Below, piece after piece: positions 3,930 through 28,001 of a stretch of DNA of 64,000 nucleotides; position 1 is the first letter of the stretch; each line of letters starts with the position of its first letter. Below the pieces are notes generated by a model, which was given only the letters and a program-made list of their open reading frames with translations, made no database searches and was not told the DNA's origin. The stretch spans positions 3,161,125-3,225,124 of the forward strand of contig NZ_CP022522.1 in the NCBI RefSeq assembly GCF_002850255.1, read 5' to 3'. Source of the stretch: Pseudoalteromonas sp. NC201 (GTDB lineage Bacteria; Pseudomonadota; Gammaproteobacteria; Enterobacterales; Alteromonadaceae). Made by a program: the position numbers and the translations under genes.

Positions 3930-6107
3930 ATGGAATTTCTAAACAACCTCGGACCAGTGCTCACAATCGTGGGTATATCCATCGTCATTATTTTTGCCAT
4001 TCTACTTCTGATTGGAAAGTTCTACCGCAAGGTTGAACAAGGTCAGGCACTGATCATCAACAAGATGAAAAACGAACCTGATGTTACGACAACGGGCGGC
4101 ATCGTACTACCTGTGATCCATAAAATGGAAGTCATGGATATTTCAACTAATCGCATGGTATTAGAGCGTCGTGAAAACAGCGGCCTGATCTGTAAAGATA
4201 ATATCCGTGCTGACATCGCCATTACTTTTTACATTCGCGTAAACGAAAACAAAGAAGATATCCTACGTGTTGCGAAACAAGTTGGCTGTGCCCGCGCATC
4301 TGCACCAGAAACCTTACAAGCATTATTTGAGGCAAAATTCTCCGAAGCCTTGAAAACCGTTGGTAAGCGCATGAATTTTGAGGAGCTATTTACACATCGT
4401 AATGAGTTCCGAGATTCTATTAAAGAAGTGATTGGACAAGATTTATCTGGCTATACGTTAGAGGATGTGGCGATTGATTATCTTGAACAAACCTCTATCG
4501 AAAAGTTAGATCCAAATAACATTCTTGACGCTGAAGGTATTCGCCGTATTACCGAAAAAACCTCGCGCCAAAACGTGGAAACTAACCAACTTAAATGCGA
4601 TGAAAAAGCGCAAATCGACAACCAAAACCAAGCAGCCTTTGAAAAAGCCGCAGAAGTCGAGCGTCAACGAGAAGATGCCAGCGCGAGACAGCGCCGTGAA
4701 ATCGAATCAGTGCGCGCTCGTGAAGCCGCTGAAGCTGAACGTGTTAAGCATGAAGAGCGCTTAAAAGCCGAAGAAGCACGCCTCAAAGCAGACGAAGCAA
4801 TTGCAATTGCAGAACACAACAAACAACGCGAAATCGATGTTGCAGAGCAAAATCGCCTTCGCTTACTCGGCATAGAAGAAGAAAAAGTCACGCGTTCTCG
4901 CCAAATTGAAATTATCGAACGCGAACGCGAAACCGAAATTTTACGTATCCAAAAAGCCAAAGCACTGGAAGTCGAGCAAAAAGAAATCGCCGATGTTCAG
5001 CGTGAACGGGTTGCCGTAGAGAAAACCGTTGCCGAGGAACAAGAGCGCATCAAAGACGTGCAATGTATTGCTGAAGCCGAGCGTGAGAAGCAAGCGAAAA
5101 TTATTCTTGCTCAAGCTGAGGCCGAAGAAGCGTTGGTTAAAGATATTGAAGCGGCTAAAGCTAAAGAGCAAGCTGCCGAATTTAAAGCCCGTGAAATGGA
5201 AAAAATGGCCGCAGCAGAACTACGTATTGCGAACCAAACCGCAGAGTCGAAGAAGATTCTTGCCGAAGCTGCCCAAGTTGAAGCGGCTGCGCCTGGTCTT
5301 GCAGAAGCAGATATCATCAAGGCAAAAGCAACTGCTAGTGCGATACAAGGCGAAACAGACGCTAAAGTGCTACAGCAAAAACTAGAAGCCGAAGCACAAG
5401 GCAAACGTGATATTGGCCGCGCCGAAGCCGAAGTACAAGCTGCAATGGCAGAGGCAACCAAGAAGCAAAGTGAAGCCGAGGCACAAGGCAAACGTGAAAT
5501 TGGTTTAGCAGAAGCTGAGGTTCAATCAGCAATGGCTGAAGCAATTGAAAAACAAGGTGAAGCAGAAGCTATCAACCTTGAGCGTAAGATGTCAGCAGAA
5601 GCCAAAGGTCTTACAGAGAAGCTGGAAGCACTTAATAAGATGGATAAAGACGCCCGTGAATACGAAGGCTTTACACTACAGCTAAATCAACAGAAAGAGC
5701 TGACGCTTGCGAGTATCGAGGCAAACAAACAAGTTTCTGCAAGTCAGGCTGAAGTATTAGGTAAAGCACTAAGCGGTGCTGATATCAACTTTATGGGCGG
5801 CGACGGCCAGTTCTTTAACCAGTTTATGAATGCCATCACAGTGGGCAAGTCAATTGACGGCTTAGTCGGCGAAAGTAAGACGGTACAAACCGTATTTAAA
5901 GATCACCTAAACGGTGAGCGTAATTTGATGGACGACCTAAAAGGGGTGTTGGCTGGTGCTAATGCGTCGTCGGAAACGCTAAAAAACATCAACATGAGTA
6001 AGTTCTTCCAACAACTAAGCAATAGCTCAGATGCGGACAAACAGCAGCTACTCAAGTTACTTGGCGGCTCGTTAAATGGCAGTAAACAAAGCGAACCACT
6101 AGAGTAA
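3930..6107 (+). CDS. yqiK: YqiK-type flotillin, long form
   Basis: This SPFH/band-7 membrane scaffold protein has one N-terminal membrane segment (residues ~8-30), a band-7 domain (residues ~35-215, including VEQGQALIINKM and FEELFTHRNEFRD), and a very long charged coiled coil rich in E, A, K and R (residues ~220-600). A C-terminal, less charged region (residues ~610-725) includes GADINFMGGDGQFFNQF. At 725 residues it is much longer than E. coli YqiK (about 553). The coiled coil contains a near-duplicated segment of about 30 residues (EAEAQGKRDIG and EAEAQGKREIG, residues ~486-550). Flotillins of this class organise membrane microdomains; cargo is not predictable. The giant ATPase gene follows 70 bp downstream on the same strand. 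Confidence 0.9.
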   Translation: MEFLNNLGPVLTIVGISIVIIFAILLLIGKFYRKVEQGQALIINKMKNEPDVTTTGGIVLPVIHKMEVMDISTNRMVLERRENSGLICKDNIRADIAITFYIRVNENKEDILRVAKQVGCARASAPETLQALFEAKFSEALKTVGKRMNFEELFTHRNEFRDSIKEVIGQDLSGYTLEDVAIDYLEQTSIEKLDPNNILDAEGIRRITEKTSRQNVETNQLKCDEKAQIDNQNQAAFEKAAEVERQREDASARQRREIESVRAREAAEAERVKHEERLKAEEARLKADEAIAIAEHNKQREIDVAEQNRLRLLGIEEEKVTRSRQIEIIERERETEILRIQKAKALEVEQKEIADVQRERVAVEKTVAEEQERIKDVQCIAEAEREKQAKIILAQAEAEEALVKDIEAAKAKEQAAEFKAREMEKMAAAELRIANQTAESKKILAEAAQVEAAAPGLAEADIIKAKATASAIQGETDAKVLQQKLEAEAQGKRDIGRAEAEVQAAMAEATKKQSEAEAQGKREIGLAEAEVQSAMAEAIEKQGEAEAINLERKMSAEAKGLTEKLEALNKMDKDAREYEGFTLQLNQQKELTLASIEANKQVSASQAEVLGKALSGADINFMGGDGQFFNQFMNAITVGKSIDGLVGESKTVQTVFKDHLNGERNLMDDLKGVLAGANASSETLKNINMSKFFQQLSNSSDADKQQLLKLLGGSLNGSKQSEPLE

Positions 6108-6177
6108 TTAACCCTGAGGAGTCAATCTGCTTGGCTCCTCTCCCCCATTTGCGACAGCGCACATAGGAAAGCAAAGA

Positions 6178-9100
6178 ATGACGGAAGCAACGCAACAAGC
6201 GCCAGAGCGAACGCTCGAACAAGACTCTTATCAACTGATTAAACGCCGACTTAGTAACTTTGGCAGCGAACTGAAAAGTCAAATAGATAAACTCAACCAA
6301 CAGCGTGTTGATACTTTTGGCAGCACCGAGCTTAAAGTGAAAGGTCGAGCAAGAGTTCGTACTGAGCATAACTGCGTACCGCGCGACATCGTACTGATCG
6401 GCGACAAGCTTATCTTTGCTTATAATGTCTTTATGGGGCTTAAACAAAATACCCAAGTCAGCGATGTATTCACCGTACAAAAGCTACACTTGCAAGAAGA
6501 TCATTACGAAATAGAACCTTACCCGCAAGAAACCAAATTCCTCACTGATCAACGTTTCTTACGGGACTTCGACGAACTATACACGTATTACAAAGACACC
6601 CGTCTACAGCACCTATTTGTTAAATCAAACAAGCTTTTTGCACTATTTCAGATTGGCGAAAAGCTCTCTGATGTCCGCGTGTTTCGCTGGCAAATCGCCA
6701 AAGACGAAACCTTAGATTACATTGATAACCGAGGAGAGCGTGACCTAGGCGAAGTGGAAAACTTTGACTTTGAATGGCAAAAAACCGATCGCGCCGATCA
6801 CGTCGAAGGCCGTCACCCACATATTAATGTAAACGACAAAGTATTTATTGAAGTATCGAGTGGCAAACTCACCGTAAAAATAGAAAACAATACCCAAAGC
6901 GGTGAAGGTATTTATCAAGAACCCGTTGATGACGCCAGTCAATCACTCGCAGATTGCGATTTACGTTTTGCCGAAGTTGGCGAAATGGTGTTGTTAAAGT
7001 TACTTCCCTACCGAGAAAAACAATGGCGTTATTTTATTTATAATTGCCGCACCCAACAGGTATTGCGCCAAGATGCGCTGGGTGGTGCCTGTGTTCAATT
7101 ACCTGAGAACCAAGGAATTATTTTTCCTGGTGGCTATTATTTACAATCTGGGCAAACACGCTATTTTGACGACCAACTGGACGATTTAATTTTCCATCGC
7201 CAGATCAAATCACCCAATGGTGAAGATGTACTGTATATCTTCTACGAACCAAACGAGGGTCGTTACGCACTTTTCTCTTACAATATTATTGAGAAAAACC
7301 TGCAAAATCCTATCTATTGTCATGGCTATGGTATCTATGACGATGGCTTAGCGCTAACCTTTAAAGCAGAGCCTGAGCCTGAGCGCGTGCACCCTATTCA
7401 AATCTGGCAAAGCCCATTTTGTGGCAGCGAGTTTGCCGCACAAGCCCCTCGAGCAACCGGCTTATTTGGCCGGATAGGCAATCCGGATTTAGTACGTGCA
7501 ATTTCTGATTTATACAGTGTGTTCAAAGCCATTAACGAACAAAGCCCCACGGTCTTTCATTATGAAGATTTAATTGCTCTCACCCGCAGTATTTTAGACC
7601 GCTATCATTGGCTTGCTGAAGCGGACTTTGCAGATGTCACAGCAAAACTACATGAAATTTTTGAAACCTCGGAGCAGGTACTAGACGAATTTGAAAAGGT
7701 AAGCCAAATTGAGGCCGACGCTCGGCGCGCAGAAACCGAAATAGAGCAAGCCATGCAAGATGTGCTTCGCGAGGTGAGACCAGATAGCTTTAAAACAGCA
7801 GAGCAATTCGTTCAGAGCTTAGAATCTCTCAAACGCTTAAAAGGCAAAGTGATAAGCCTTGAAGAAGTGAAGTATATCAATCTTGACGCGCTATCTGCCA
7901 TGCAGCAGCAGGTTGATGAGCAAACCTTAAGCTTAAGCCATAAAACCGCGGAGTTTTTGCAGCAAGATAGTGCTTTGGCGCCCTACTACGAGCAGCTAGA
8001 CTCCTTAGAGCAAACCAGAGCGCAAACAGAGAGTGTCACCGAGCTTAACGGCTTTTTGGCGACCTTGGAAACCTTAAGCGCTGAACTTGATTTGCTCAAC
8101 CATACCATGCTGGATCTCGACATTGACGATAGCCGCATTCGCACTAAAATTTTGGAAGATGTCAGCGCCATTTATGGTCAAGTAAACCGCGCCAAAGCAG
8201 CGTTAGAAATCCAGAAAAAGAGCGTGGGCAGTGTTGAAGCAAAAGCCGAATTTGCGGCTCGTTTTAAGCTTTTCAGCCAAAGTATTACCAGCGGTCTAAG
8301 CGCTGCCAAAACCCCAGAGCAATGTGATGACCAACTATCTCGCTTACTCATTCAATTAGAAGAGCTCGAGTCTCAATTTAGTCAGTATGATGAATTTTTA
8401 ACAGAGATCTTGGCTAAACGTGATGACGTTTATGAAAGCTTTGAGGCGCACAAACAGCAGCTCATTGACGAAAGACAGCGCCGCGCGCTGAGCCTAGCAA
8501 ACGCAGCAGAGCGGATTTTACAGGGGGTGACGCGACGCTCGCAAAGTTTTAAAACCTTAGATGACATCAATAGCTATTTTGCCTCCGATCCTATGATTGG
8601 CAAGCTTCGCGATTTAACGCAAGAGCTAAAAAGCCTAAGCGATGAAGTGAAGGCGGATGATATTCAAGCCAAACTCAAGGCCTGCAAAGATCAAGCGATC
8701 CGCGCTTTGCGAGACAAGCAAGATATTTATATTGATGGTGGCAATACCGTTAAAGTCGGCAAACATGCGTTTAGTTTCAATAAACAAATCCTTGATTTGA
8801 CTTTGCTGCCTCGTGGTGAACAGCTGATGTTACACCTCACTGGCACTGAGTATTTTGATACCATTCCTGACGCCAAGGTCAATCAACAACTCAATGACGC
8901 AAGCACATACTGGCAGCAAAACCTGATCTCAGAAAATCGTCACTTATATCGAGGCGAGTACCTTGCAGCTCAAGTATTAGCGGCTGCAGAGCAAGATGGC
9001 AACGACTTTAGTCTAGCGGATTTAGAACTTGCCGTTGATGAGGGAAGTTTACTGTCTATCGTACAAAAATTTGCAGAACCTCGATATCAAGAAGGCTATG

Positions 9101-11676
9101 AAAAAGGCATTCATGATCAAGATGCCAGCCTGATCTTAGTTAATTTACTAAAACAAAAACGACAGCTTGAGTTACTCGTCTACCCTGCCAGCTGTCGAAT
9201 TGCGGCACAGCTCTTTTATACTCAACAAAGCAAGGCTGAGCTAGCTGAATTGGCGTTTCAGGCCACACAAGCAGAGCTGATGGCAACGAAGTTAGATGAC
9301 CATAGTTTTAGCCAACAGCTAAGCAAAGAATTGAGTGAAAAGATCACGGCATTTTGCCAACAAAATTTATCGAGCTATTTAACCGAGCTACACCGCTTTT
9401 CAGGCGAGTTAAGCGCAACTTACTTAATAAAAGCCCTTGCCAAGCAAGTCAAGCCGAGACAATTTGATTTGGCTTCACCTGCAAAACACACCAGCGAGCA
9501 GTTTATCTCGATGGCAAAGGCCAAAGGCGTTTGGCAACAGCTTGAAGACTCATTAACGCATTTGACTAAACTTGCGGACAAATGCCGCCTGTTAAGCAGC
9601 TGGCTGCGCGCCTATGGCAGTAAGCAAAATGAAAGTACTGAGACCTTGCTTGAGGCCGCTAACTGCATTTTGCTTTCCACCCAGTTAGATATCACATACC
9701 AAGTCAAAGAAGCCGAAATAAAAACCGAAATTTCAGGTTTGATGGGCCAACATCCACGTATCGAGAACCAAGTGCTACACCTAGATTATGCAGACTTTTT
9801 TGCCCGTAGTAACGAGTATCTCACGGTTCATGTTCCGGCCTACAAACAGTACCAACAGTTAAAAGCACAAGTGCTTGAGGCACAAAAGCAGCGCTTGCAA
9901 TTGGATGAGTTTAAACCCAGACCACTAAGCTCATTTGTACGTAACCAGCTGATTGACAAAGTCTACTTCCCTATTATTGGCGATAACTTAGCAAAACAAA
10001 TAGGGGCTGCAGGAAACAATAAACGCACCGACTTAATGGGCATGTTGCTGCTTATCTCCCCTCCGGGCTATGGTAAAACCACGCTAATAGAGTATGTAGC
10101 CAACCGCTTAGGACTCACCTTTGTTAAGGTCAACTGTCCATCCATTGGTCACGACCAAGTCTCTTTAGATCCAGCTCAAGCCATCAACGCGACTGCCGCA
10201 AAAGAAATTGAGAAGATCAACCAAAGCTTTGAGATGGGCAATAATGTGATGCTGTACCTTGACGATATTCAGCACACCAACCCCGAGTTTTTACAAAAGT
10301 TCATCTCTTTATGTGACGGTTCAAGACGCATAGACGGGGTGTGGAATGGCCGCAGTAAAACCTATGATCTGAGAGGCAAAAAGTTTGCCGTTGTGATGGC
10401 AGGAAACCCCTACACCGAATCCGGTGAATCCTTTAAGATCCCAGATATGCTTGCCAACCGTGCGGATATTTACAACCTCGGTGACACTCTCAGTGGCTGC
10501 GAACAAGAATTTGCCATGAGCTTTATTGAAAATACGCTTACTTCCAATGCGGTGCTCGCACCACTTGCCAATCGTGGTATGGAAGACTTGTACAAGCTAG
10601 TGCGCATTGCCGACGGAGAAGACATCTCCATCAATGAATTGGAATTTAATTACTCTCAAGCGCAAGTGAATGAAATTGTCAGCGTACTGAAAAAGCTGCT
10701 CACCATTCGCAACACCGTGCTCAAAGTAAATGCCCAATATATAGCCTCAGCAGCGCAAGATGATAACTATCGAACCGAGCCGCCGTTTAAGCTACAAGGC
10801 AGTTACCGTAACATGAATAAGATGGCTGAAAAGGTGGTTGCTGCCATGAATGACAGTGAACTTGAAAATCTAATTCAAGATCACTATCGCGGTGAAGCAC
10901 AAACACTTAGCAAAGGCAGCGAAGAAAACTTACTGAAACTGGCTGAATTACGCGGTACCTTAACGGCTGAAGAAGCTACGCGCTGGCATGAAATCAAGGC
11001 CGAATATGCCCGCCTGCACCGCAATAGCGACGAAGGAAGCCCTGCGCAATTGGCAGTTGAACAACTAAGCTTTGTCAATAAATCCCTTTCGCAAATCGCC
11101 GCTAAACTCGATAAAGAGCAGCTTAGCTTTGATTACAGTGCGCTGTTGCAACAATTGGCTCAAGTGCTTAACGAGCAAGAGTTTGCCACGCAGTTAACTG
11201 AGCTACGTGAGGCCTTAACGCAGCAACCTTACGCTACACCGCTAAAGCAATTGATAGCTTCACAGCAACAAGTCGCAGAAGAAATTGCGGGGCTGCAAAA
11301 CGCTATCAAACGCACTGCGAACAACGAGCAGCTACTCGCTAACCTTGGCAAACTCAATGACTTGCTCAGCACCCAAGCGCAGATACAACAAGCGTTGGGT
11401 CAACAAGGTCAGCAGCAAAATACGCTATTTGAAAACCTGTCTGAGCGCTTAGAAGCGGTGGCACAACCGCATATTCAAGTCGACAATCACGTTGATGATA
11501 GCAGTGCAAAAGCGCTTGAAGCCGTCACCACTTTGCTGACAAATACCTTAGCAAACTCAAGCGCTGAACAAGTCCAGCAGCAACAGCTAAAAGACATTTT
11601 ACAAAAGCTGGAGGATATTCAATCAAGACCTGTTGTTAGTAACGGATCACCTGCGAAAAACCCGTATATGTTGTAA
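6178..11676 (+). CDS. Giant AAA+ coiled-coil ATPase (DUF3686-type 'DNA repair ATPase')
   Basis: This protein has 1832 residues. The N-terminal ~480 residues are beta-rich with short repeated strands, matching what I recall of the DUF3686 family annotated as DNA-repair ATPase (assigned from memory, not by search). Long coiled-coil stretches follow (~500-860), then an alpha-helical region. An AAA+ domain starts near residue 1260, with Walker A SPPGYGKTTLIEY (~1297) and Walker B MLYLDDIQH (~1357). In the same domain are AGNPYTESGESFKIPDMLANRAD and a helical lid. The C-terminal ~300 residues are Gln-rich coiled coil. No signal peptide or membrane helix is visible, so it is probably cytosolic. Its position behind yqiJ-yqiK suggests it acts on or with the flotillin scaffold; substrate and any DNA role are unproven. 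Confidence 0.8.
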   Translation: MTEATQQAPERTLEQDSYQLIKRRLSNFGSELKSQIDKLNQQRVDTFGSTELKVKGRARVRTEHNCVPRDIVLIGDKLIFAYNVFMGLKQNTQVSDVFTVQKLHLQEDHYEIEPYPQETKFLTDQRFLRDFDELYTYYKDTRLQHLFVKSNKLFALFQIGEKLSDVRVFRWQIAKDETLDYIDNRGERDLGEVENFDFEWQKTDRADHVEGRHPHINVNDKVFIEVSSGKLTVKIENNTQSGEGIYQEPVDDASQSLADCDLRFAEVGEMVLLKLLPYREKQWRYFIYNCRTQQVLRQDALGGACVQLPENQGIIFPGGYYLQSGQTRYFDDQLDDLIFHRQIKSPNGEDVLYIFYEPNEGRYALFSYNIIEKNLQNPIYCHGYGIYDDGLALTFKAEPEPERVHPIQIWQSPFCGSEFAAQAPRATGLFGRIGNPDLVRAISDLYSVFKAINEQSPTVFHYEDLIALTRSILDRYHWLAEADFADVTAKLHEIFETSEQVLDEFEKVSQIEADARRAETEIEQAMQDVLREVRPDSFKTAEQFVQSLESLKRLKGKVISLEEVKYINLDALSAMQQQVDEQTLSLSHKTAEFLQQDSALAPYYEQLDSLEQTRAQTESVTELNGFLATLETLSAELDLLNHTMLDLDIDDSRIRTKILEDVSAIYGQVNRAKAALEIQKKSVGSVEAKAEFAARFKLFSQSITSGLSAAKTPEQCDDQLSRLLIQLEELESQFSQYDEFLTEILAKRDDVYESFEAHKQQLIDERQRRALSLANAAERILQGVTRRSQSFKTLDDINSYFASDPMIGKLRDLTQELKSLSDEVKADDIQAKLKACKDQAIRALRDKQDIYIDGGNTVKVGKHAFSFNKQILDLTLLPRGEQLMLHLTGTEYFDTIPDAKVNQQLNDASTYWQQNLISENRHLYRGEYLAAQVLAAAEQDGNDFSLADLELAVDEGSLLSIVQKFAEPRYQEGYEKGIHDQDASLILVNLLKQKRQLELLVYPASCRIAAQLFYTQQSKAELAELAFQATQAELMATKLDDHSFSQQLSKELSEKITAFCQQNLSSYLTELHRFSGELSATYLIKALAKQVKPRQFDLASPAKHTSEQFISMAKAKGVWQQLEDSLTHLTKLADKCRLLSSWLRAYGSKQNESTETLLEAANCILLSTQLDITYQVKEAEIKTEISGLMGQHPRIENQVLHLDYADFFARSNEYLTVHVPAYKQYQQLKAQVLEAQKQRLQLDEFKPRPLSSFVRNQLIDKVYFPIIGDNLAKQIGAAGNNKRTDLMGMLLLISPPGYGKTTLIEYVANRLGLTFVKVNCPSIGHDQVSLDPAQAINATAAKEIEKINQSFEMGNNVMLYLDDIQHTNPEFLQKFISLCDGSRRIDGVWNGRSKTYDLRGKKFAVVMAGNPYTESGESFKIPDMLANRADIYNLGDTLSGCEQEFAMSFIENTLTSNAVLAPLANRGMEDLYKLVRIADGEDISINELEFNYSQAQVNEIVSVLKKLLTIRNTVLKVNAQYIASAAQDDNYRTEPPFKLQGSYRNMNKMAEKVVAAMNDSELENLIQDHYRGEAQTLSKGSEENLLKLAELRGTLTAEEATRWHEIKAEYARLHRNSDEGSPAQLAVEQLSFVNKSLSQIAAKLDKEQLSFDYSALLQQLAQVLNEQEFATQLTELREALTQQPYATPLKQLIASQQQVAEEIAGLQNAIKRTANNEQLLANLGKLNDLLSTQAQIQQALGQQGQQQNTLFENLSERLEAVAQPHIQVDNHVDDSSAKALEAVTTLLTNTLANSSAEQVQQQQLKDILQKLEDIQSRPVVSNGSPAKNPYML

Positions 11677-11768: not shown

Positions 11769-12683
11769 TTACTCCGGCATTTTTGCCATCACCGCCAAAA
11801 ACTCTAGTGAGGGTGCAAAAAACGCAGAACCCATATCGGCACTGGAATAATCCAATATGGGATCGTATTCATCCCCTTCACCCAATCGACTTCTTAACAC
11901 CTGCTCAAAAGCATCACCCTTGGCGCTGCAACTTAGCGACAAGCTTCCTTGTTCAAATACATCACCAAATGGCATGCTTTGGTTAAGCAGTAGCGCATTA
12001 CCATTTACGTCTTTCAATTCGGTTAATGCCGCATGATTACAGGGTTCGCAATCTTCAATTAGGTCATTGTCTAGACGTGTACGCCCCATTAATTGCTCTT
12101 GCTCAGCGAGCGGCAACGCCTGCCAGCGCAGTAAATCAAACTTCACCCGCTGTACGTGAATATAACTACCAAGATGGTCGGCTGCATTCGGGTTGTGCAC
12201 AAGTGCAACTTCCCGTTTATTGCGCCCTCTAGGTGTGTCTGCACCATAAATAAAGCCATTAAAATCACGACCGTCTAAGAAACGAAAGGCGCGCACATGT
12301 GCCACCATTTCAACTAGGCCGTTTAGCATATGCAGCACACTTTGAGCAAAGATATGATTAACATCTTCTCGATCGGAGCGGATCACATAAAGCAAGTCAA
12401 AAGGCTGAGTATGCACGGTGTGCTCAGCCTCAACAATATGTGGAAAGCTTTTTAACTCTTTAGGAATAAACTCAGGATAAATGTGCGGCCAGTATTGCGC
12501 ACCAACCGCGATAAAGCTCGACAGCATAGACTCAGAGAATCTGTCTTCTAACTCCTCTTGCAAGCGTCCACAATTGGCGAGCGCCGCTCTTAGCGCCTCG
12601 TCTTGCCCTTCAAGCACATTGAAGAACAAGTGTAAGCCGTGCAAATTGGCTTCAGCACACACACCTGATTGGGCAAGCGCCAT
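11769..12683 (-). CDS. DyP-type peroxidase homologue with substituted distal catalytic residues
   Basis: The 304-residue protein aligns with YfeX-type dye-decolorising peroxidases (about 299 residues): N-terminal QSGV, the GSYIHVQRV segment, EQEQLMGRTR and the terminal FFAPSLEFL are all recognisable. The proximal haem ligand is kept (His217 in CNHAALTE). The catalytic aspartate of the GxxDG motif is Tyr146 (GFIYGADTP), and the distal arginine before the QS-MPFG segment is Asn234 (LNQSMPFG). Classical DyP peroxidation needs both, so it may bind haem without that activity. No Tat or Sec signal is visible, so it is probably cytosolic. It follows fbpC by 30 bp on the same strand with a good AGGGAG site, which places it in the iron-import operon. 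Confidence 0.85.
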   Translation of the reverse strand: MALAQSGVCAEANLHGLHLFFNVLEGQDEALRAALANCGRLQEELEDRFSESMLSSFIAVGAQYWPHIYPEFIPKELKSFPHIVEAEHTVHTQPFDLLYVIRSDREDVNHIFAQSVLHMLNGLVEMVAHVRAFRFLDGRDFNGFIYGADTPRGRNKREVALVHNPNAADHLGSYIHVQRVKFDLLRWQALPLAEQEQLMGRTRLDNDLIEDCEPCNHAALTELKDVNGNALLLNQSMPFGDVFEQGSLSLSCSAKGDAFEQVLRSRLGEGDEYDPILDYSSADMGSAFFAPSLEFLAVMAKMPE

Positions 12684-12713: not shown

Positions 12714-13745
12714 TTAAGAAAAGAAATTTACAGCATGTGCCTTAATTTTTAAAGAGATTGGTTGATTTAAGTCGAGTGGCTCATGCGCTGGATGCGGGAC
12801 TTCGAGCTCTTGTCCCTCTAATGCAACACGATAAATGTACTCTGTTCCCATAAAGCGCTGATTGAGTACTTTAACGCTGCCAAGCTCGGCGTTTTCTAAC
12901 GTAATGTGCTGTGGCCTCACATACATTTCGCCCTTCGCGTCGATATTACCGAGCTCAACGAGAGACTTTACAGCACCAAATTGGGTTTCTACCGAAGCGC
13001 CATTCATTCGCTGTGCAGGAATATAAATTCCCTGACCCAAAAACTCAGCAACCATTTTGCTCTTTGGTCGTTGGAACAACGTTCTCGGCTCGCCCACTTG
13101 TGCGATCTTCCCTTTATCCATAATTGCCAACCGATCGGCAAAAGCAAAAGCTTCTTCTTTCGAGTGACTAACAAAAATCGCGGAAACTTGCTGATCTTTG
13201 ATTATACGGCGAATATCGTTAATTAACTGAAACCGCACTTGAGCATCTATATTTGAAAATGGCTCATCAAGCAGCAACAGATTTGGCTTGTACGCCAGTG
13301 CTCGCGCAATTGCGACACGTTGTTGCTGGCCACCTGATAGCTCGTGTGGAAAGCGGTCGCTATAGTCTTGCAGCTGCACCAAATGGAGCATTTCAGCTAC
13401 TCGGTCTTGACGTTCACGCTTGCTTTTTGAGGTTAAACCAAACGCCACATTTTGCGCCACAGTGAGGTGTGGGAACAGCGCATAGTCTTGAAACATCATG
13501 CCAATATTGCGTTTTTGTGGAGGTACAAAAGTGCCATGACCATTCATGGCTTTGCCTAAAATACTCACCGAGCCTTGAAATGGTTCAATCAAGCCCGCTA
13601 TCGCCTTCAGCGTGGTCGTTTTACCGCAGCCACTGGCACCAAGCAAACAAACAATCTCGTTTTGTTCTACGGTCAGATTTAGGCTATCCACAACGGCTTC
13701 ACCGTCATAGCGATAAGAGAGATTTTCAAGCACTAAACTATGCAT
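12714..13745 (-). CDS. fbpC: Ferric iron ABC transporter, ATP-binding subunit
   Basis: This 343-residue ATPase energises ferric iron import through FbpB. It has Walker A GASGCGKTTTLK, the Q-loop FQDYALFPHLT, the signature LSGGQQQRVAIARAL, Walker B LLLLDEP and the switch histidine in FVSHSKEEA. A C-terminal domain of about 100 residues (TOBE-like) follows, as in the FbpC/AfuC/PotA group. Its start overlaps the fbpB stop by one base, showing translational coupling. Confidence 0.93.
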   Translation of the reverse strand: MHSLVLENLSYRYDGEAVVDSLNLTVEQNEIVCLLGASGCGKTTTLKAIAGLIEPFQGSVSILGKAMNGHGTFVPPQKRNIGMMFQDYALFPHLTVAQNVAFGLTSKSKRERQDRVAEMLHLVQLQDYSDRFPHELSGGQQQRVAIARALAYKPNLLLLDEPFSNIDAQVRFQLINDIRRIIKDQQVSAIFVSHSKEEAFAFADRLAIMDKGKIAQVGEPRTLFQRPKSKMVAEFLGQGIYIPAQRMNGASVETQFGAVKSLVELGNIDAKGEMYVRPQHITLENAELGSVKVLNQRFMGTEYIYRVALEGQELEVPHPAHEPLDLNQPISLKIKAHAVNFFS

Positions 13746-15376
13746 TAACTTCGCTGCTCCATAGAACGGTTTACAACATAAAGCGGAATTAAACCAACCA
13801 ACACAATAAATAACGCAGAGACAGAAGCCAACTCCAGCTGCTCATCACTCACATATTGGAAAACATGTGTTGCTAGTGTTTCATAATTAAAGGGTCGTAA
13901 TAACAATGCCGCTGGAAGTTCTTTCATACACTCAATAAAAACCAGCAGTGCTGCGGTTAAAATACCGCGACGCAGCAATGGCAAATGTATTGATAACATG
14001 GTTTTGAAACGATTGCGACCCAACGAAAAACTTGCCATATCTAGACTTGGACTGATCCGCTGATAACTTGATTCGACCGCGCCTTGTGAAATCGCATAAA
14101 ATCGTACAACGTAAGCGAAAACCAGCGCAAAAATCGTCCCGCTGAACAGCAAGCCAGGCTCAAATGAAGTACCTTCAAGCCAAGCATTTAGCTTGTCGTC
14201 TAATAAAGTGAGTGGAATAAGTACCGCAATTGCCAGCACCGTGCCCGGTAGCGCATATCCGGTACTTGCAAGCTTGCCCGGTAGCGTGACCCGTTTACCA
14301 CTACTAACTCGCTGGTTAAACACCACCAGCATGCTCATGATAATTAACACCACACTCACCCAAAACGCTATTTTTAAACTTTGCCACGCATACAAGAAAA
14401 AATCGTCATTCCAAGCTTGTTCAAAATAGTCGACGGCGTAATCTGCAAGCACCCATGTAGGCACGATAAAAGCCGCAATAAGAATAAGCCAACAAAAAGC
14501 GCTAGCGAGCCAAGCCTGCGCGCCTTTAAGATGATAAAGCGTGGTACTGTTAACACTCGATTGGCGCTCATGCACTACCTGAGTTGGGCGACTCACTCGC
14601 TCCAGTGTTAGGGCTAAAAATAAAAATAGTAGCATAATGCCTGAAATTTTAGCCGCTGCGGTAAGTGAATAATAGCCCAACCAAGTATCGTAAACGGCGG
14701 TGGTTAGTGTGCTCACAGCAAAGTAATGTACGGTTGCAAAATCTGCCATGCTTTCCATGGCGATCAGTGCCAGCCCCGCCACAATCGCCCCTCGCGACAG
14801 AGGTAAACTTACTTTAAAGAAGCTCTGTGAAGGCGACTTGCCCATCAATTGGCTGGCTTGCACCAGCTTAAACGACTGCTCTCTTAGCGCCGTTCTAAAA
14901 ATCAAAAACAAATAAGGATAAAGCACCAGTGCAATCATCACGATAGCACCTGACAAAGTGCGAATATCAAAAAACCAATAATCGTCTGGAGATTGCCAAC
15001 CAAACCACTCTCGCAGCGCGATTTGAACAGGCCCTGCATAATCTAGCAAATCGGTATACACGTAAGCAATCAAATAGGTTGGCATCGCAAGGGGTAGCAT
15101 CAACGACCATTCGAAAAAGCGCCGTCCAGGAAATTCACAATATGCAGTTAGCCAGCCAAGTGGTAGCGCGATTAAAGCGCAAAGGATGCATACACCCACA
15201 ATCAGCAAAATCGTATTGCGGACATAATCCCACAGAACGGTATCCCAAAGGTGAGCAAAGACTTCGGAGTCAGGTTGTAGCGACTCAAAGATTAAAAACA
15301 TCAGCGGGACTGATAGACTAAGCCCTATCAGCCACGCAAAACTCTGCCATTTAGACAGTGAAAATGATAATTGCAT
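13745..15376 (-). CDS. fbpB: Ferric iron ABC transporter, permease subunit
   Basis: The 543-residue integral membrane permease has about twelve hydrophobic segments in two homologous halves, as is usual for fused FbpB/AfuB permeases. Both halves carry an EAA-type cytoplasmic loop (ASQLMGKSPSQSFFKVSLPL near residue 180 and ASFSLGRNRFKTMLSIHLPL near 460) that docks on the ATPase. It overlaps both neighbours by one base, so fbpA, fbpB and fbpC are translated as one unit. Confidence 0.93.
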   Translation of the reverse strand: MQLSFSLSKWQSFAWLIGLSLSVPLMFLIFESLQPDSEVFAHLWDTVLWDYVRNTILLIVGVCILCALIALPLGWLTAYCEFPGRRFFEWSLMLPLAMPTYLIAYVYTDLLDYAGPVQIALREWFGWQSPDDYWFFDIRTLSGAIVMIALVLYPYLFLIFRTALREQSFKLVQASQLMGKSPSQSFFKVSLPLSRGAIVAGLALIAMESMADFATVHYFAVSTLTTAVYDTWLGYYSLTAAAKISGIMLLFLFLALTLERVSRPTQVVHERQSSVNSTTLYHLKGAQAWLASAFCWLILIAAFIVPTWVLADYAVDYFEQAWNDDFFLYAWQSLKIAFWVSVVLIIMSMLVVFNQRVSSGKRVTLPGKLASTGYALPGTVLAIAVLIPLTLLDDKLNAWLEGTSFEPGLLFSGTIFALVFAYVVRFYAISQGAVESSYQRISPSLDMASFSLGRNRFKTMLSIHLPLLRRGILTAALLVFIECMKELPAALLLRPFNYETLATHVFQYVSDEQLELASVSALFIVLVGLIPLYVVNRSMEQRS

Positions 15377-16380
15377 TAAAGGTCAAATTTTACCTCATCG
15401 ATTAGCTTAAGCGCTAACGGACGGTATTTACTGATCTCTGACAATGGTAGGCTGTCTTCCTTAAACTCACCCCAAGATGCCACAAGTTTCGATAACTCGA
15501 CGCCAGGTTTAACCGGGTATTCCATATTCATCGACGCATACATATTTTGCGCCTTATTGTCGGTCATAAACTCAATGAGTTTCAAGGCATTTTCTGTATT
15601 TTTAGCGTGCTTGGTCAAGACAACACCAGAAACGTTGATATGTGAACCACGATCTTGTTGATTTGGGAAGTTGATATATACCGCTTCGGCCCAGGCTTTT
15701 TGTTTCTCATCTTCCATCATCTTACCGAAGTAATAGCTGTTTCCGATGGCCAAATCACACAGTCCTTCTTTTACTGCTTTGACTTGTGCACGGTCGTTAC
15801 CTTGAGGCTTACGAGCTAAATTTTTCTTCACGCCTTCAAGCCATTCTTTGGTTTTTGCTTCGCCATGATGGGCAATCATAGACGCCACTAAACCAAGGTT
15901 ATAGGGGTGTTTACCTGAGCGCGTACATATTTTACCGCGGTATTGTTCATCCGCTAGCGCTTCATAAGTAAGCGCATCTAACTTGCCTACACGGTCTTTT
16001 GCAGAATATACATTGCGCACACGCTTAGTAAGCGCAACCCACTGACCTTCAGGATCTCTGAAGTTCGCTGGGATATTCTTAGTGACGGTTTCGCTGTTAA
16101 TTGCTTGTGTTAGGTTTTCGTCTTCAAGTTGAATTAGCGCACTGAAGTTTGAAGTGAGTACAAGATCGGCACGGCTATGCTTGCCTTCACGCTTAACACG
16201 CTCGATTAAGCCTTTTTTTGCAAAAACCACATTGGTCTTGATACCGGTTTGCTTGGTGAAGTCATCCAAAATAGGTTGGATCAGAAAAGGTTGTCTAAAC
16301 GAGTAGATATTAACTTCCTCTGCAGCCATTGCTGGTAGGCAAGTAAGCGTTGCCAGTATAGTAACAAGTGCTTTTTTCAT
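15376..16380 (-). CDS. fbpA: Periplasmic ferric iron-binding protein
   Basis: The 334-residue protein has a Sec signal peptide ending at AMAAEE (cleavage near residue 19-20) and then the class of solute-binding fold found in FbpA/IdiA: VNIYSFRQPFLIQPIL, ADLVLTSNFSALIQLE, RSGKHPYNLGLVASMIAHHG and AIGNSYYFGKMM, where a Tyr pair near residues 215-220 is the expected iron-ligand position. It delivers ferric iron to FbpBC. A Fur-like box lies about 20 bp upstream of its start, so iron repression is likely. Confidence 0.93.
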   Translation of the reverse strand: MKKALVTILATLTCLPAMAAEEVNIYSFRQPFLIQPILDDFTKQTGIKTNVVFAKKGLIERVKREGKHSRADLVLTSNFSALIQLEDENLTQAINSETVTKNIPANFRDPEGQWVALTKRVRNVYSAKDRVGKLDALTYEALADEQYRGKICTRSGKHPYNLGLVASMIAHHGEAKTKEWLEGVKKNLARKPQGNDRAQVKAVKEGLCDLAIGNSYYFGKMMEDEKQKAWAEAVYINFPNQQDRGSHINVSGVVLTKHAKNTENALKLIEFMTDNKAQNMYASMNMEYPVKPGVELSKLVASWGEFKEDSLPLSEISKYRPLALKLIDEVKFDL

Positions 16381-16396
16381 AAAGACTCCATTAGGT

Positions 16397-16415
16397 AAAC
16401 AATAATTATTATCAA
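16397..16415 (-). promoter_or_regulatory. Putative Fur box upstream of fbpA
   Basis: Read on the minus strand, TGATAATAATTATTG matches the 7-1-7 Fur core TGATAATnATTATCA at 12 of 14 positions. It is located 20 bp before the fbpA start codon in an AT-rich promoter region. Confidence 0.75.
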
Positions 16416-16528: not shown

Positions 16529-16671
16529 GCTACCAGAAATTGAGTAAAGACGCGTTGAAATAACACTCAGAATTAAGGTAACTAATTAAAAAATAAAAAG
16601 TTATTTATTATTACCAGAAAAAGACGCAAAAAAGATTGAATTTCACTGCTCCCGATTTTTTTTAGTCTGCT

Positions 16672-16677
16672 TATACT
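16672..16677 (+). promoter_or_regulatory. -10 box of the CsrB-type RNA
   Basis: TATACT precedes the GGA-rich transcript region by about 6 bp. No good -35 is visible 17 bp upstream, which fits an activator-dependent promoter. Confidence 0.6.
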
Positions 16678-16682
16678 TAAAA

Positions 16683-17320
16683 ACATCTCAGGAAGAGAGA
16701 TAAAGGATACACAGGATACGCTCAGGGCAGGATTTGCTAATGGATAAGCACCCACTTAAAGGAATATAGGGAAAAGCGAGCGAGATTGTATGTCACATGG
16801 TGTGATTACATTAAAGGACAGGGATTAAAGGTTCATGATGAACCTAAGGATTGCTTCAGGGGAGAGGCTAAACGTTGAGGGATAACGTTACTGCATTGGA
16901 TATGCAGGTGGTTAAGGATGAGGAAGGAAGGTACATTGGATGTACTGGTAAAATGTGGCTTAGGAGATGCCAATTGTTGCAATTAACAGCGCAACACCTA
17001 GCTTGAAGCAACACGTTCAGGCTACCAAGTGCCAAGGTAAAACAAGGTGATGATTGGCACTGCTATTTTGGAAAGTAGCAAACAAGGACAATTAGAACAA
17101 GGGCTTGTTCTTAGCAAGTGGATGGCAATGGATAAGACAGCGGACGTGTAAAAGGAAGATGGACACAGGGCAAGATGCCTTTATTCGCAAAACGAGAACA
17201 CCAAGCGATGCCATGGAAGAGGAAAGATTCAGGACGTTGAACTACTCAACTTTGCAGGATGCATTTAGAAGATTCCGTAAGCGCGACTCAGCAATGAGTC
17301 GCGCGCTTCTTGTTTTATTT
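16683..17320 (+). ncRNA. csrB: CsrB-type small RNA (CsrA/RsmA antagonist)
   Basis: The plus strand holds about 29 GGA triplets between 16691 and 17259 but almost no TCC, which is the signature of RNAs that sequester CsrA. Several GGA are displayed in hairpin loops, for example GTACATTGGATGTAC (16931-16945), CTGCATTGGATATGCAG (16891-16907) and AACGTTGAGGGATAACGTT (16871-16889). A GacA/UvrY palindrome and a -10 lie upstream, and a strong terminator ends it at ~17281-17304 plus T tract. At about 640 nt it is longer than E. coli CsrB (369 nt). GGA motifs fall in two clusters (18 in 16691-16965, 11 in 17070-17259) with a ~100-nt gap. A 78-residue frame inside it is not a gene. Exact ends are inferred. 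Confidence 0.88.
17281..17320 (+). terminator. Terminator of the CsrB-type RNA
   Basis: A 9-bp GC-rich stem (GCGCGACTC / GAGTCGCGC, loop AGCAAT) is followed by a T-rich run (TTGTTTTATTTTTATT). Confidence 0.88.
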
Positions 17321-17374
17321 TTATTCCTATCTGTCGCGTGATATTGCGCTTGTGTTGTCGAAATAAATTTCGAC

Positions 17375-27300: not shown

Positions 27301-28001
27301 GAGCCGATGTTTAACAACCACCTATCAATAATATCGCTATCGTAGATCATCAATACATGGGCGTTATCCACCGTTGATAATTTCTTACCGAGCGCAAACA
27401 TTTGTCTATCGAAAAACTTCACGGGTGGACCAACGACTATATTGCCCAAGCTAAAGTCGGGTTCGAACTTACCTTGAACTAACCGGGTGATGAAATGGCT
27501 GCTTGACGCATCTCGACGCTTAACATACGCAAAACCATCATCTTCTATGTATGCGACCGCATACAATCCACCTTGCAACGCGAGTGCGGCATCAAAAGCG
27601 GTATTAAGCGATAATACGGTTTGCCATCGTTTAGTGGCAAAAAGCGCTTCACTGACTTGCCCACGACCAACAATCTCTCCACCATTGTTTGGTAACGCAT
27701 GATAATAATGTTCAGGGTGTTGCTCTATATCTTCTAACCACTCTGGCGGCTTTTGAAAAGAAATTGGCTGCGCTAGGTTAACGGCGATACTATCAAGAAC
27801 GACATGTGCAGCATAAAACTCTTGTTTCAGCTGCTGAGAAACATATTCATACTGGCCAAAACGTACTTTGTACTGGCGTTCGAGTTTAATTTGATAGAGA
27901 TGGTAAGCTAAGACGAGGACAAGTAGGATGGGTATTATTACCGCCACTAAAATTCCCTTTCGGTAACTTTTTAGTGGTAAAAATTCTTTTGTCGCATCCA
28001 T
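24306..28001 (-). CDS. Hybrid sensor histidine kinase (dCache-like, PAS-PAS-HisKA-HATPase-REC-HPt)
   Basis: The 1231-residue membrane kinase has a membrane helix at ~16-33, a periplasmic sensor region (~35-300), a second helix (~302-325), then a linker and coiled coil, PAS domains starting at ~412 (LDSVPDIIYFKNIDG) and ~525 (EFAPNGVILA). HisKA has the phospho-acceptor His near 663 (NISHEIRTPINAILG), followed by HATPase (DTGVGI, GIGLGLAIVKQ). A receiver has its Asp near 1050 (LMDIHMPNIDG), and a C-terminal HPt domain has His near 1174 (LAHGIKGAAAGLG). This is a complete phosphorelay in one chain. The degenerate GGDEF regulator follows 9 bp downstream. The signal is unknown. Confidence 0.92.
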   Translation of the reverse strand: MDATKEFLPLKSYRKGILVAVIIPILLVLVLAYHLYQIKLERQYKVRFGQYEYVSQQLKQEFYAAHVVLDSIAVNLAQPISFQKPPEWLEDIEQHPEHYYHALPNNGGEIVGRGQVSEALFATKRWQTVLSLNTAFDAALALQGGLYAVAYIEDDGFAYVKRRDASSSHFITRLVQGKFEPDFSLGNIVVGPPVKFFDRQMFALGKKLSTVDNAHVLMIYDSDIIDRWLLNIGSLDGTMEFKNQSDEIIAGKRYDHDHDGVVNSSAPWQYGLHFIAKPAKEPISLNYHESYEQFAAPLQQEILLELALLLFFILFTFVTIVWLSGQIFVRPLKHFVNYLSLQEHTPQATLNYPIPSEWQPWFIQIKQVVEQKSRLMHTLKQHNQELDDEIKRKQQALKQSFEAKERQAALLNAVLDSVPDIIYFKNIDGSFIGCNRAFEEFMGVDKSDLVAKTQPEVTSGLTILLEQEVAMERSQEQVATNFVLGANTYFLTITPLKSETGKLIGCLGVARDITAAQEAYNALRDSEENFRAATEFAPNGVILAAISGKILEMNKAAKRYLSLDKNTGKKQLERLFDEQNWQELKPVLAGLLKEQKKVVEHMISQSGKHRWLQLSISLVWDKNKRPKYYVIHIQNITGLLLAKQDAERATLAKSRFIANISHEIRTPINAILGLADMIKSETLTRVQNKKLQQLSGAANELLTMLNSILEFAKVESHQGTIQYETFQTCHVFTTIESLIKPLCIQKGLEFELQVAPQVWPYLYSDEDKVKQILVNLLGNAVKYTNQGKVGLKVALVNDRAAKQTIKFAVWDTGVGIKSQEIEHLFDAFTQGDESFTRRHEGIGLGLAIVKQEVALLGGDIAVNSTPNEGSCFFFELVLDKGACPVVDSHKEVYCLTTEAHSLPSYFAGLAESLSVERLHAMHAQLDKSIVVIPPETSLDPAYALPENTALLLHCEGVFPEQSNHIALNQSVFYQSAYTWLAEFAHMTQTVDNVCMQVAGALCLVVDDNNLNLDITENMLKQNGISTVGLQSAEHIEEVCRSLQPDIILMDIHMPNIDGYQATKQIRAVWSETELPVIALTANASKEERAKATAVGMNDYLVKPINSTQACKALASNIFQSDKTEEIFFDYEFALSQMMQNETFLQTMLDKFAKLCHDYLEQVAEIEQGSALFELAHGIKGAAAGLGFKRLAKVAKDLETQSKTITTITNRTDLDVLTNALSQVVCFIELKR

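What the first reader, a model, noticed from the sequence alone, without database searches (positions are those of the whole stretch)
11769..12683. DyP-family protein lacking both distal catalytic residues, encoded in an iron-import operon
Seen: the fold-level motifs of YfeX-type DyP are intact and the proximal haem His217 is kept, but the GxxDG catalytic Asp is Tyr146 (TAT codon at 12246-12248) and the distal Arg is Asn234 (AAC codon). Position matches E. coli YfeX D143, H215 and R232 as I recall that sequence. Known: Asp and Arg are needed for compound I formation in DyP peroxidases. Inference: it may be a haem-binding or haem-processing protein (storage, transfer or dechelation) that serves the fbpABC iron system; EfeB is a precedent for DyP in iron uptake.
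Basis: partly seen in the sequence, partly recalled or inferred. Interest (0 to 1): 0.7.

Follow-up and report, generated by a model that had tools for sequence, protein, structure and literature searches.

The report
Retired peroxidase in iron-import operon
In these marine bacteria a haem peroxidase made together with an iron importer has lost both residues that do the peroxidase chemistry but kept the haem anchor throughout the genus, and the same Asp-to-Tyr swap arose separately in a related genus, so the protein was probably turned into a haem-handling protein rather than left to decay.

Summary
The gene (minus strand, 12683-11769; Pseudoalteromonas) encodes a DyP-fold protein with Tyr146 for the GxxDG Asp, Asn234 for the distal Arg, and His217 kept. 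This is a clade trait: of 72 named Pseudoalteromonas loci none keeps Asp or Arg (62 Tyr, 10 Leu), and dN/dS is low. It is not a decayed or mis-sequenced gene. The 27 fetched outgroup loci with the same fbpABC-dyp order all keep Asp and Arg. On a tree built without the motif columns, Asp kept-or-lost changes 8 times. Asp-to-Tyr arose separately in Pseudoalteromonas and Alteromonas, each with Thr142-to-Asn; one origin is rejected (AU p 0.0001). FbpA is a ferric-binding protein behind a likely Fur box. Best reading: a catalytically retired haem-binding DyP, Tyr146 filling or ligating the distal haem side, used in cytoplasmic haem/iron handling. Against it: a Leu146 subclade, three Phe217 sequences, and no Fur box at unlinked copies (1 of 36). 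Haem binding, Tyr ligation and lack of activity are untested. New variant of a known kind.

The parts
11769..12683 (-). DyP-family gene lacking distal Asp and Arg (304 aa, P0001)
12246..12248 (-). codon TAT, Tyr146, at the catalytic Asp of GxxDG
12258..12260 (-). codon AAT, Asn142, Thr in most Asp/Arg relatives; changes together with position 146
12033..12035 (-). codon CAT, His217, proximal haem ligand position
11982..11984 (-). codon AAC, Asn234, at the distal Arg position
12714..13745 (-). fbpC, ABC ATPase; 30 bp upstream of the dyp start codon
13745..15376 (-). fbpB, ABC permease; end base shared with fbpC
15376..16380 (-). fbpA, ferric-ion binding protein; end base shared with fbpB
   Evidence: 402 bits to 1q35, iron binding protein FbpA
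16400..16414 (.). likely Fur box before fbpA, 12 of 14 positions of a palindromic 7-1-7 consensus (consensus typed from recall)

Best explanation
The protein is a DyP that has been retired as a peroxidase and kept as a haem (or porphyrin) binding protein. Shown: fold, loss of both distal catalytic residues as a clade trait, kept proximal His, low dN/dS, gene order with a ferric importer, and a parallel T142N plus D146Y change in Alteromonas. Inferred: haem is still held by His217; Tyr146, on the loop that in KpDyP brings Asp to 5.0 A from the iron, fills the distal pocket and may ligate or cap the iron (a Tyr/His pair as in the haemophore HasA of S. marcescens), with the polar residue at 234 (Asn, Asp, His, Glu, Gln or Ser in Pseudoalteromonas) as a possible hydrogen-bond partner. 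This would hinder peroxide and leave a protein that buffers, passes on or helps strip cytoplasmic haem when FbpABC is induced by iron shortage.
For: Clade trait: 0 of 72 named Pseudoalteromonas loci keep Asp146 or Arg234; a relative with E below 1e-92 in 36 of 36 genomes of the genus, own genome included. His217 in 365 of 369 distinct sequences. dN/dS median 0.049 over 15 pairs, near fbpA 0.051. Two origins of Tyr: AU p 0.000111 against one clade. In the Pseudoalteromonas-Alteromonas pair two columns at least 90% conserved in the background changed in parallel, 142 and 146, both in one motif; of the other 27 clade pairs compared four also have one or two such columns, elsewhere or at 145/147. 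Asn142 never occurs with Asp146 (0 of 194). Asn-Tyr motif in 30 of 295 genomes of the family, 3 of 52 genera, and 2 of 369 of the class. FbpC next to dyp in 68 of 72 named Pseudoalteromonas loci. KpDyP variants lose about three orders of rate. HasA of S. marcescens binds haem iron by Tyr75 and His32 (PMC9627568, passages).
Against: Leu replaces Tyr146 in 10 of 72 named Pseudoalteromonas loci, so Tyr ligation cannot be essential everywhere. Three Pseudoalteromonas-type sequences have Phe217 (L100, P0060, P0062) and one Alteromonas-type sequence has Pro217. Position 234 is Lys (50) or Leu (7) in 57 of the 58 Tyr146 proteins among the 120, not good partners for a phenolate. Tyr146 occurs without Asn142 in 5 of 180 distinct sequences. 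Unlinked copies show no Fur box: 1 of 36 at p 0.05 or below. The gene order predates the loss.
Confidence: 0.5

Rival explanations
1. It is still an enzyme, with other chemistry. Tyr146 takes a redox or proton-transfer role near the haem (as the catalytic Tyr of coproheme decarboxylases does at another place of a related fold), or a slow peroxidase or porphyrinogen oxidase activity suffices in the cell.
For: Two separate origins of the same Tyr with Asn142 look like gain of something specific; KpDyP D143A/R232A still makes compound I at 4.5e3 per M per s; the relative weight of Asp and Arg differs among DyPs, and Arg-replaced YfeX keeps guaiacol and catechol activity (PMC8197335, passages).
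Against: Leu146 subclade; residue 234 varies widely, unusual for an active site; the catalytic Tyr of coproheme decarboxylases sits at the pocket edge, where DyPs have Arg or Gln (PMC7611857, section).
Confidence: 0.25
2. Structural compensation. Arg was lost first under relaxed need for peroxidase; without Arg the distal Asp loop is unstable, so Asp was replaced by residues that fill the hole (Tyr, Leu, Ile and others).
For: Rows placed next to each Tyr clade have lost Arg but keep Asp (Alkalimonas D/T, L144 D/F, L159 D/Q; L146 and L162 D/K) on the tree; in KpDyP R232A collapses loop 142-148 while D143A/R232A is wild-type-like, with glycerol in the Arg site; many letters at 146 (12 changes).
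Against: Tyr plus Asn142 twice is more specific than filling a hole; the placement of the Alkalimonas-type rows beside Pseudoalteromonas is not strongly supported (89/61); some Psychrosphaera-type sequences lost Asp (Lys) while keeping Arg.
Confidence: 0.2
3. A decayed gene or a sequencing error.
For: None found.
Against: Present in 36 of 36 genomes of the genus, same states in 72 named loci, dN/dS median 0.049.
Confidence: 0.01

Closest known systems
Shewanella oneidensis TyrA (SO_0740; 2hag, 2iiz), a cytoplasmic bacterial DyP
   Different: TyrA keeps the distal Asp and Arg. TyrA itself is not in the tree
KpDyP D143A/R232A double variant (6fiy)
   Same: lacks the same two residues; man-made counterpart; compound I formation about 1000-fold slower
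   Different: Ala in place of both; here Tyr and Asn, natural and conserved; about 28% identity
EfeB and YfeX, proposed deferrochelatases
   Same: DyP fold; EfeB lies in an iron-import operon; YfeX is cytoplasmic and was reported to capture iron from haem
   Different: EfeB is a Tat-exported class I protein; dechelation by DyPs is disputed
HasA haemophores
   Same: Proposed Tyr/His pair on the haem iron, as in HasA of S. marcescens
   Different: Other fold and secreted (recalled); ligation here not shown; HasA of Y. pestis uses Tyr alone

Membership tests
DyP superfamily (fold/homology) | Dyp_perox_N and _C profiles, DyP fold | tested here: met
DyP-type peroxidase (as an enzyme) | distal Asp of GxxDG | tested here: not met
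   Tyr146
DyP-type peroxidase (as an enzyme) | distal Arg | tested here: not met
   Asn234
DyP-type peroxidase (as an enzyme) | proximal His | tested here: met
   His217
DyP-type peroxidase (as an enzyme) | proximal Asp/Glu next to the His (KpDyP Asp268) | tested here: inconclusive
   That loop is two residues shorter in 104 of 132 Pseudoalteromonas-type sequences; in 61 Alteromonas-type loops of standard length the position is Asp in 3; in 110 Asp/Arg relatives of that length it is Asp in 81, so it varies there too
DyP-type peroxidase (as an enzyme) | H2O2-dependent activity | not testable with these tools
   needs bench work
TyrA subfamily of DyP | closer to TyrA than to YfeX-type proteins | tested here: met
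   best PDB match 2hag at 242.8 bits, next 133.8, YfeX 113.6; 80 rows of this kind split from six outgroup rows with 100/99, TyrA itself not among them
EfeB (iron uptake deferrochelatase subunit) | TIGR01412 equivalog score | tested here: not met
   18.8 bits, cut-off 428
Haem carrier with Tyr/His ligation (HasA-like mechanism) | both axial ligands from protein | not testable with these tools
   needs spectra or a holo structure

The most novel reading that the evidence does not exclude
Twice in marine gammaproteobacteria a haem peroxidase was converted into a six-coordinate Tyr/His haem carrier by the same two-residue switch (Thr142 to Asn, Asp146 to Tyr) after loss of the distal Arg; in Pseudoalteromonas this carrier is a standing fourth member of the FbpABC ferric-import operon, joining ferric import to cytoplasmic haem handling.
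Probability: 0.27. Interest if true: 0.78.

Novelty: new variant of a known kind. Interest (0 to 1): 0.6.

Why it matters
What B-type DyPs do in cells is disputed: peroxidase, porphyrinogen oxidase or deferrochelatase. A natural version without the peroxidase residues, kept under selection across a genus in a ferric-import operon, lets one ask which function does not need peroxidase chemistry. The separate origin in Alteromonas gives a second natural experiment.

Tried and rejected
Single decayed gene or error: rejected.

Asp274 as the partner of the proximal His: I noted this and withdraw it; counting on the alignment puts KpDyP Asp268 about six residues earlier, in a loop that varies.

One origin of Tyr146: rejected by the AU test.

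Fur control of unlinked copies: not found (1 of 36 at p 0.05 or below).

Leu146 tied to loss of fbpABC: 3 of 10 Leu-type named loci lack fbpABC against 1 of 62 Tyr-type, but they are close relatives, so not used.

Iron-Tyr distance on the model: no model coordinates in the Python box.

Literature: nine searches gave listings, some cut (for example 15 of 162 papers, 12 of 59, 10 of 34). By title and start of abstract I saw in them no natural DyP lacking both distal residues and no study of a Pseudoalteromonas DyP; subscription papers are mostly not held, so this is no proof of absence. Seen: PMC6153280 abstract and two sections; PMC7611857 abstract and part 1 of section 2.5; PMC8463360 abstract and one section; PMC4263509 abstract; PMC8197335, PMC3577903, PMC9627568, PMC7732582 passages. 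PMC3215433 is not held.

Full report

It is a clade trait. Homologue names place the genome in Pseudoalteromonas. The 36 genomes of the genus examined, own included, each carry a relative with E below 1e-92. In 72 named Pseudoalteromonas loci position 146 is Tyr in 62 and Leu in 10, and Arg234 is in none; the 234 letters there are Asn, Asp, His, Glu and Ser, and Gln in one listed protein. Three Pseudoalteromonas-type sequences have Phe at 217 (L100, P0060, P0062; L100 and P0062 group together); over 369 distinct sequences position 217 is His in 365. dN/dS is low (DyP median 0.049 in 15 pairs, maximum 0.328; FbpA 0.051, FbpB 0.030, FbpC 0.121; simple NG86 counts, few pairs). Five of the 36 genomes have a second DyP match; these five keep Asp and Arg, and the three put in the tree fall with the outgroup.

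Operon. fbpA, fbpB and fbpC share end bases and dyp starts 30 bp after fbpC. FbpA matches solved ferric-binding proteins (1q35, 402 bits). A 12 of 14 match to a Fur consensus lies just before fbpA (16400-16414); the window has three such matches where 0.38 are expected, the other two at 27700 and 28197. Across 95 loci with fbpA, 68 have an upstream best match with p at or below 0.05 in Markov shuffles. In S. oneidensis FbpABC rises in a fur mutant (PMC7732582, passage). An FbpC match lies directly upstream of dyp in 68 of 72 named Pseudoalteromonas loci, and in Algicola. In the outgroup families f6, f16 and f25 (unnamed handles) the same order on one strand is seen in 8 of 11, 7 of 7 and 12 of 12 fetched loci, in some with a wider gap before dyp; all 30, linked or not, keep Asp and Arg. 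So the pairing came first and the loss later. In the 22 loci fetched from other genera of the own family fbpA and fbpB are not within the stretch.

Repeated loss and parallel change. On a tree of 86 sequences built without the motif columns, Asp kept-or-lost changes 8 times, the letter at 146 12 times, Arg kept-or-lost 3 times, the letter at 217 once (minimum counts that cannot tell gain from loss; the six outgroup rows, all Asp/Arg, make Asp/Arg the likely ancestor). Tyr146 occurs in Pseudoalteromonas and in genus g27, which is Alteromonas by a shared contig length (G156:C14, and P0156) and the names. Holding both in one clade costs 79.5 log units, AU p 0.000111. Both clades also have Asn142 in place of Thr; Asn142 is never seen with Asp146 (0 of 194), while Tyr146 is seen without Asn142 in 5 of 180. 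Of 28 clade pairs, 23 share no parallel change at a column at least 90% conserved in the background; this pair shares two, 142 and 146; f6 with f16 and f6 with f25 share one each, Alkalimonas shares two with each Tyr clade (145 and 266; 21 and 147). So parallel change as such is not unique; the point is that here both columns lie in the active-site motif. By DNA pattern the Asn-Tyr motif is in 30 of 295 genomes of the family (13 of 16 of g1, 15 of 15 of g27, 2 of g379; 3 of 52 genera) and in 2 of 369 genomes of the class, the own genome and one g27. The pattern is exact, so these are lower bounds.

Order of events. Next to Pseudoalteromonas the tree puts Alkalimonas-type rows (Asp kept, Arg lost), and next to Alteromonas Brumicola-type rows (L146, L162: Asp kept, Lys for Arg). 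The first placement is weakly supported (89/61). If right, Arg went first both times. KpDyP offers a reason: R232A collapses the distal loop and D143A/R232A does not.

Mechanism, inferred. In KpDyP the Asp carboxylate is 5.0 A from the iron. A Tyr on the same backbone is about 3 A longer (recalled side-chain geometry), so it could reach ligation distance; this was not measured. Tyr/His ligation is known in HasA of S. marcescens. For chlorite dismutase variants and a coproheme decarboxylase, not DyPs, haem is reported to be extractable where the proximal carboxylate partner is missing; in Alteromonas-type proteins that position is rarely Asp (3 of 61), in Pseudoalteromonas-type the loop is mostly shortened and cannot be assigned, and among Asp/Arg relatives it is Asp in 81 of 110. 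I therefore favour a labile or buffering haem-binding role in the cytoplasm (no signal-peptide predictor was run), with about even odds.

Results against. The Leu146 subclade, the Phe217 sequences, variable residue 234 (Lys or Leu in most Alteromonas-type proteins) and the lack of Fur boxes at unlinked copies (1 of 36) limit the iron and Tyr-ligand parts of the reading.

Verdict. New variant of a known kind.

Noticed in passing
window 16641-17330, + strand: Candidate CsrB/RsmB-type sRNA in the 1-kb gap between fbpA and the DTW-like gene: weak Rfam CsrB match 16773-16981 (19.2 bits, below gathering 71); 29 GGA on the + strand against 3 on the other (shuffle mean 17.4, maximum 29 of 500), richest 500-bp stretch for GGA in the window in 50-bp steps. 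Ten other Pseudoalteromonas gaps show the same strand bias (16-52 against 1-10), though four of the ten do not exceed their shuffle maximum. A block near 17184-17315 is matched in several other Pseudoalteromonas loci.
   Followed up: partly
window 3930-11676, + strand: Band_7 (SPFH) protein followed by an 1832-aa DUF3686/AAA ATPase, tail to tail with dyp; in 80 related loci a match to the ATPase is within the fetched stretch only in L032, L033, L034, L057 and L101.
   Followed up: partly
L066, L084, L086 upstream of dyp: No fbpA or fbpB match and only short fbpC-like stretches, while dyp (Leu146) is an open frame; L075 (Tyr146) has no fbp match.
   Followed up: partly
L100, P0060, P0062: Pseudoalteromonas-type sequences with Phe at the proximal His position but Tyr146 kept; a possible change of haem ligand side or loss of haem.
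   Followed up: no
L111, P0075, P0082 and other Psychrosphaera-type sequences: Lys at the catalytic Asp position with Arg kept, a different natural distal pocket.
   Followed up: no
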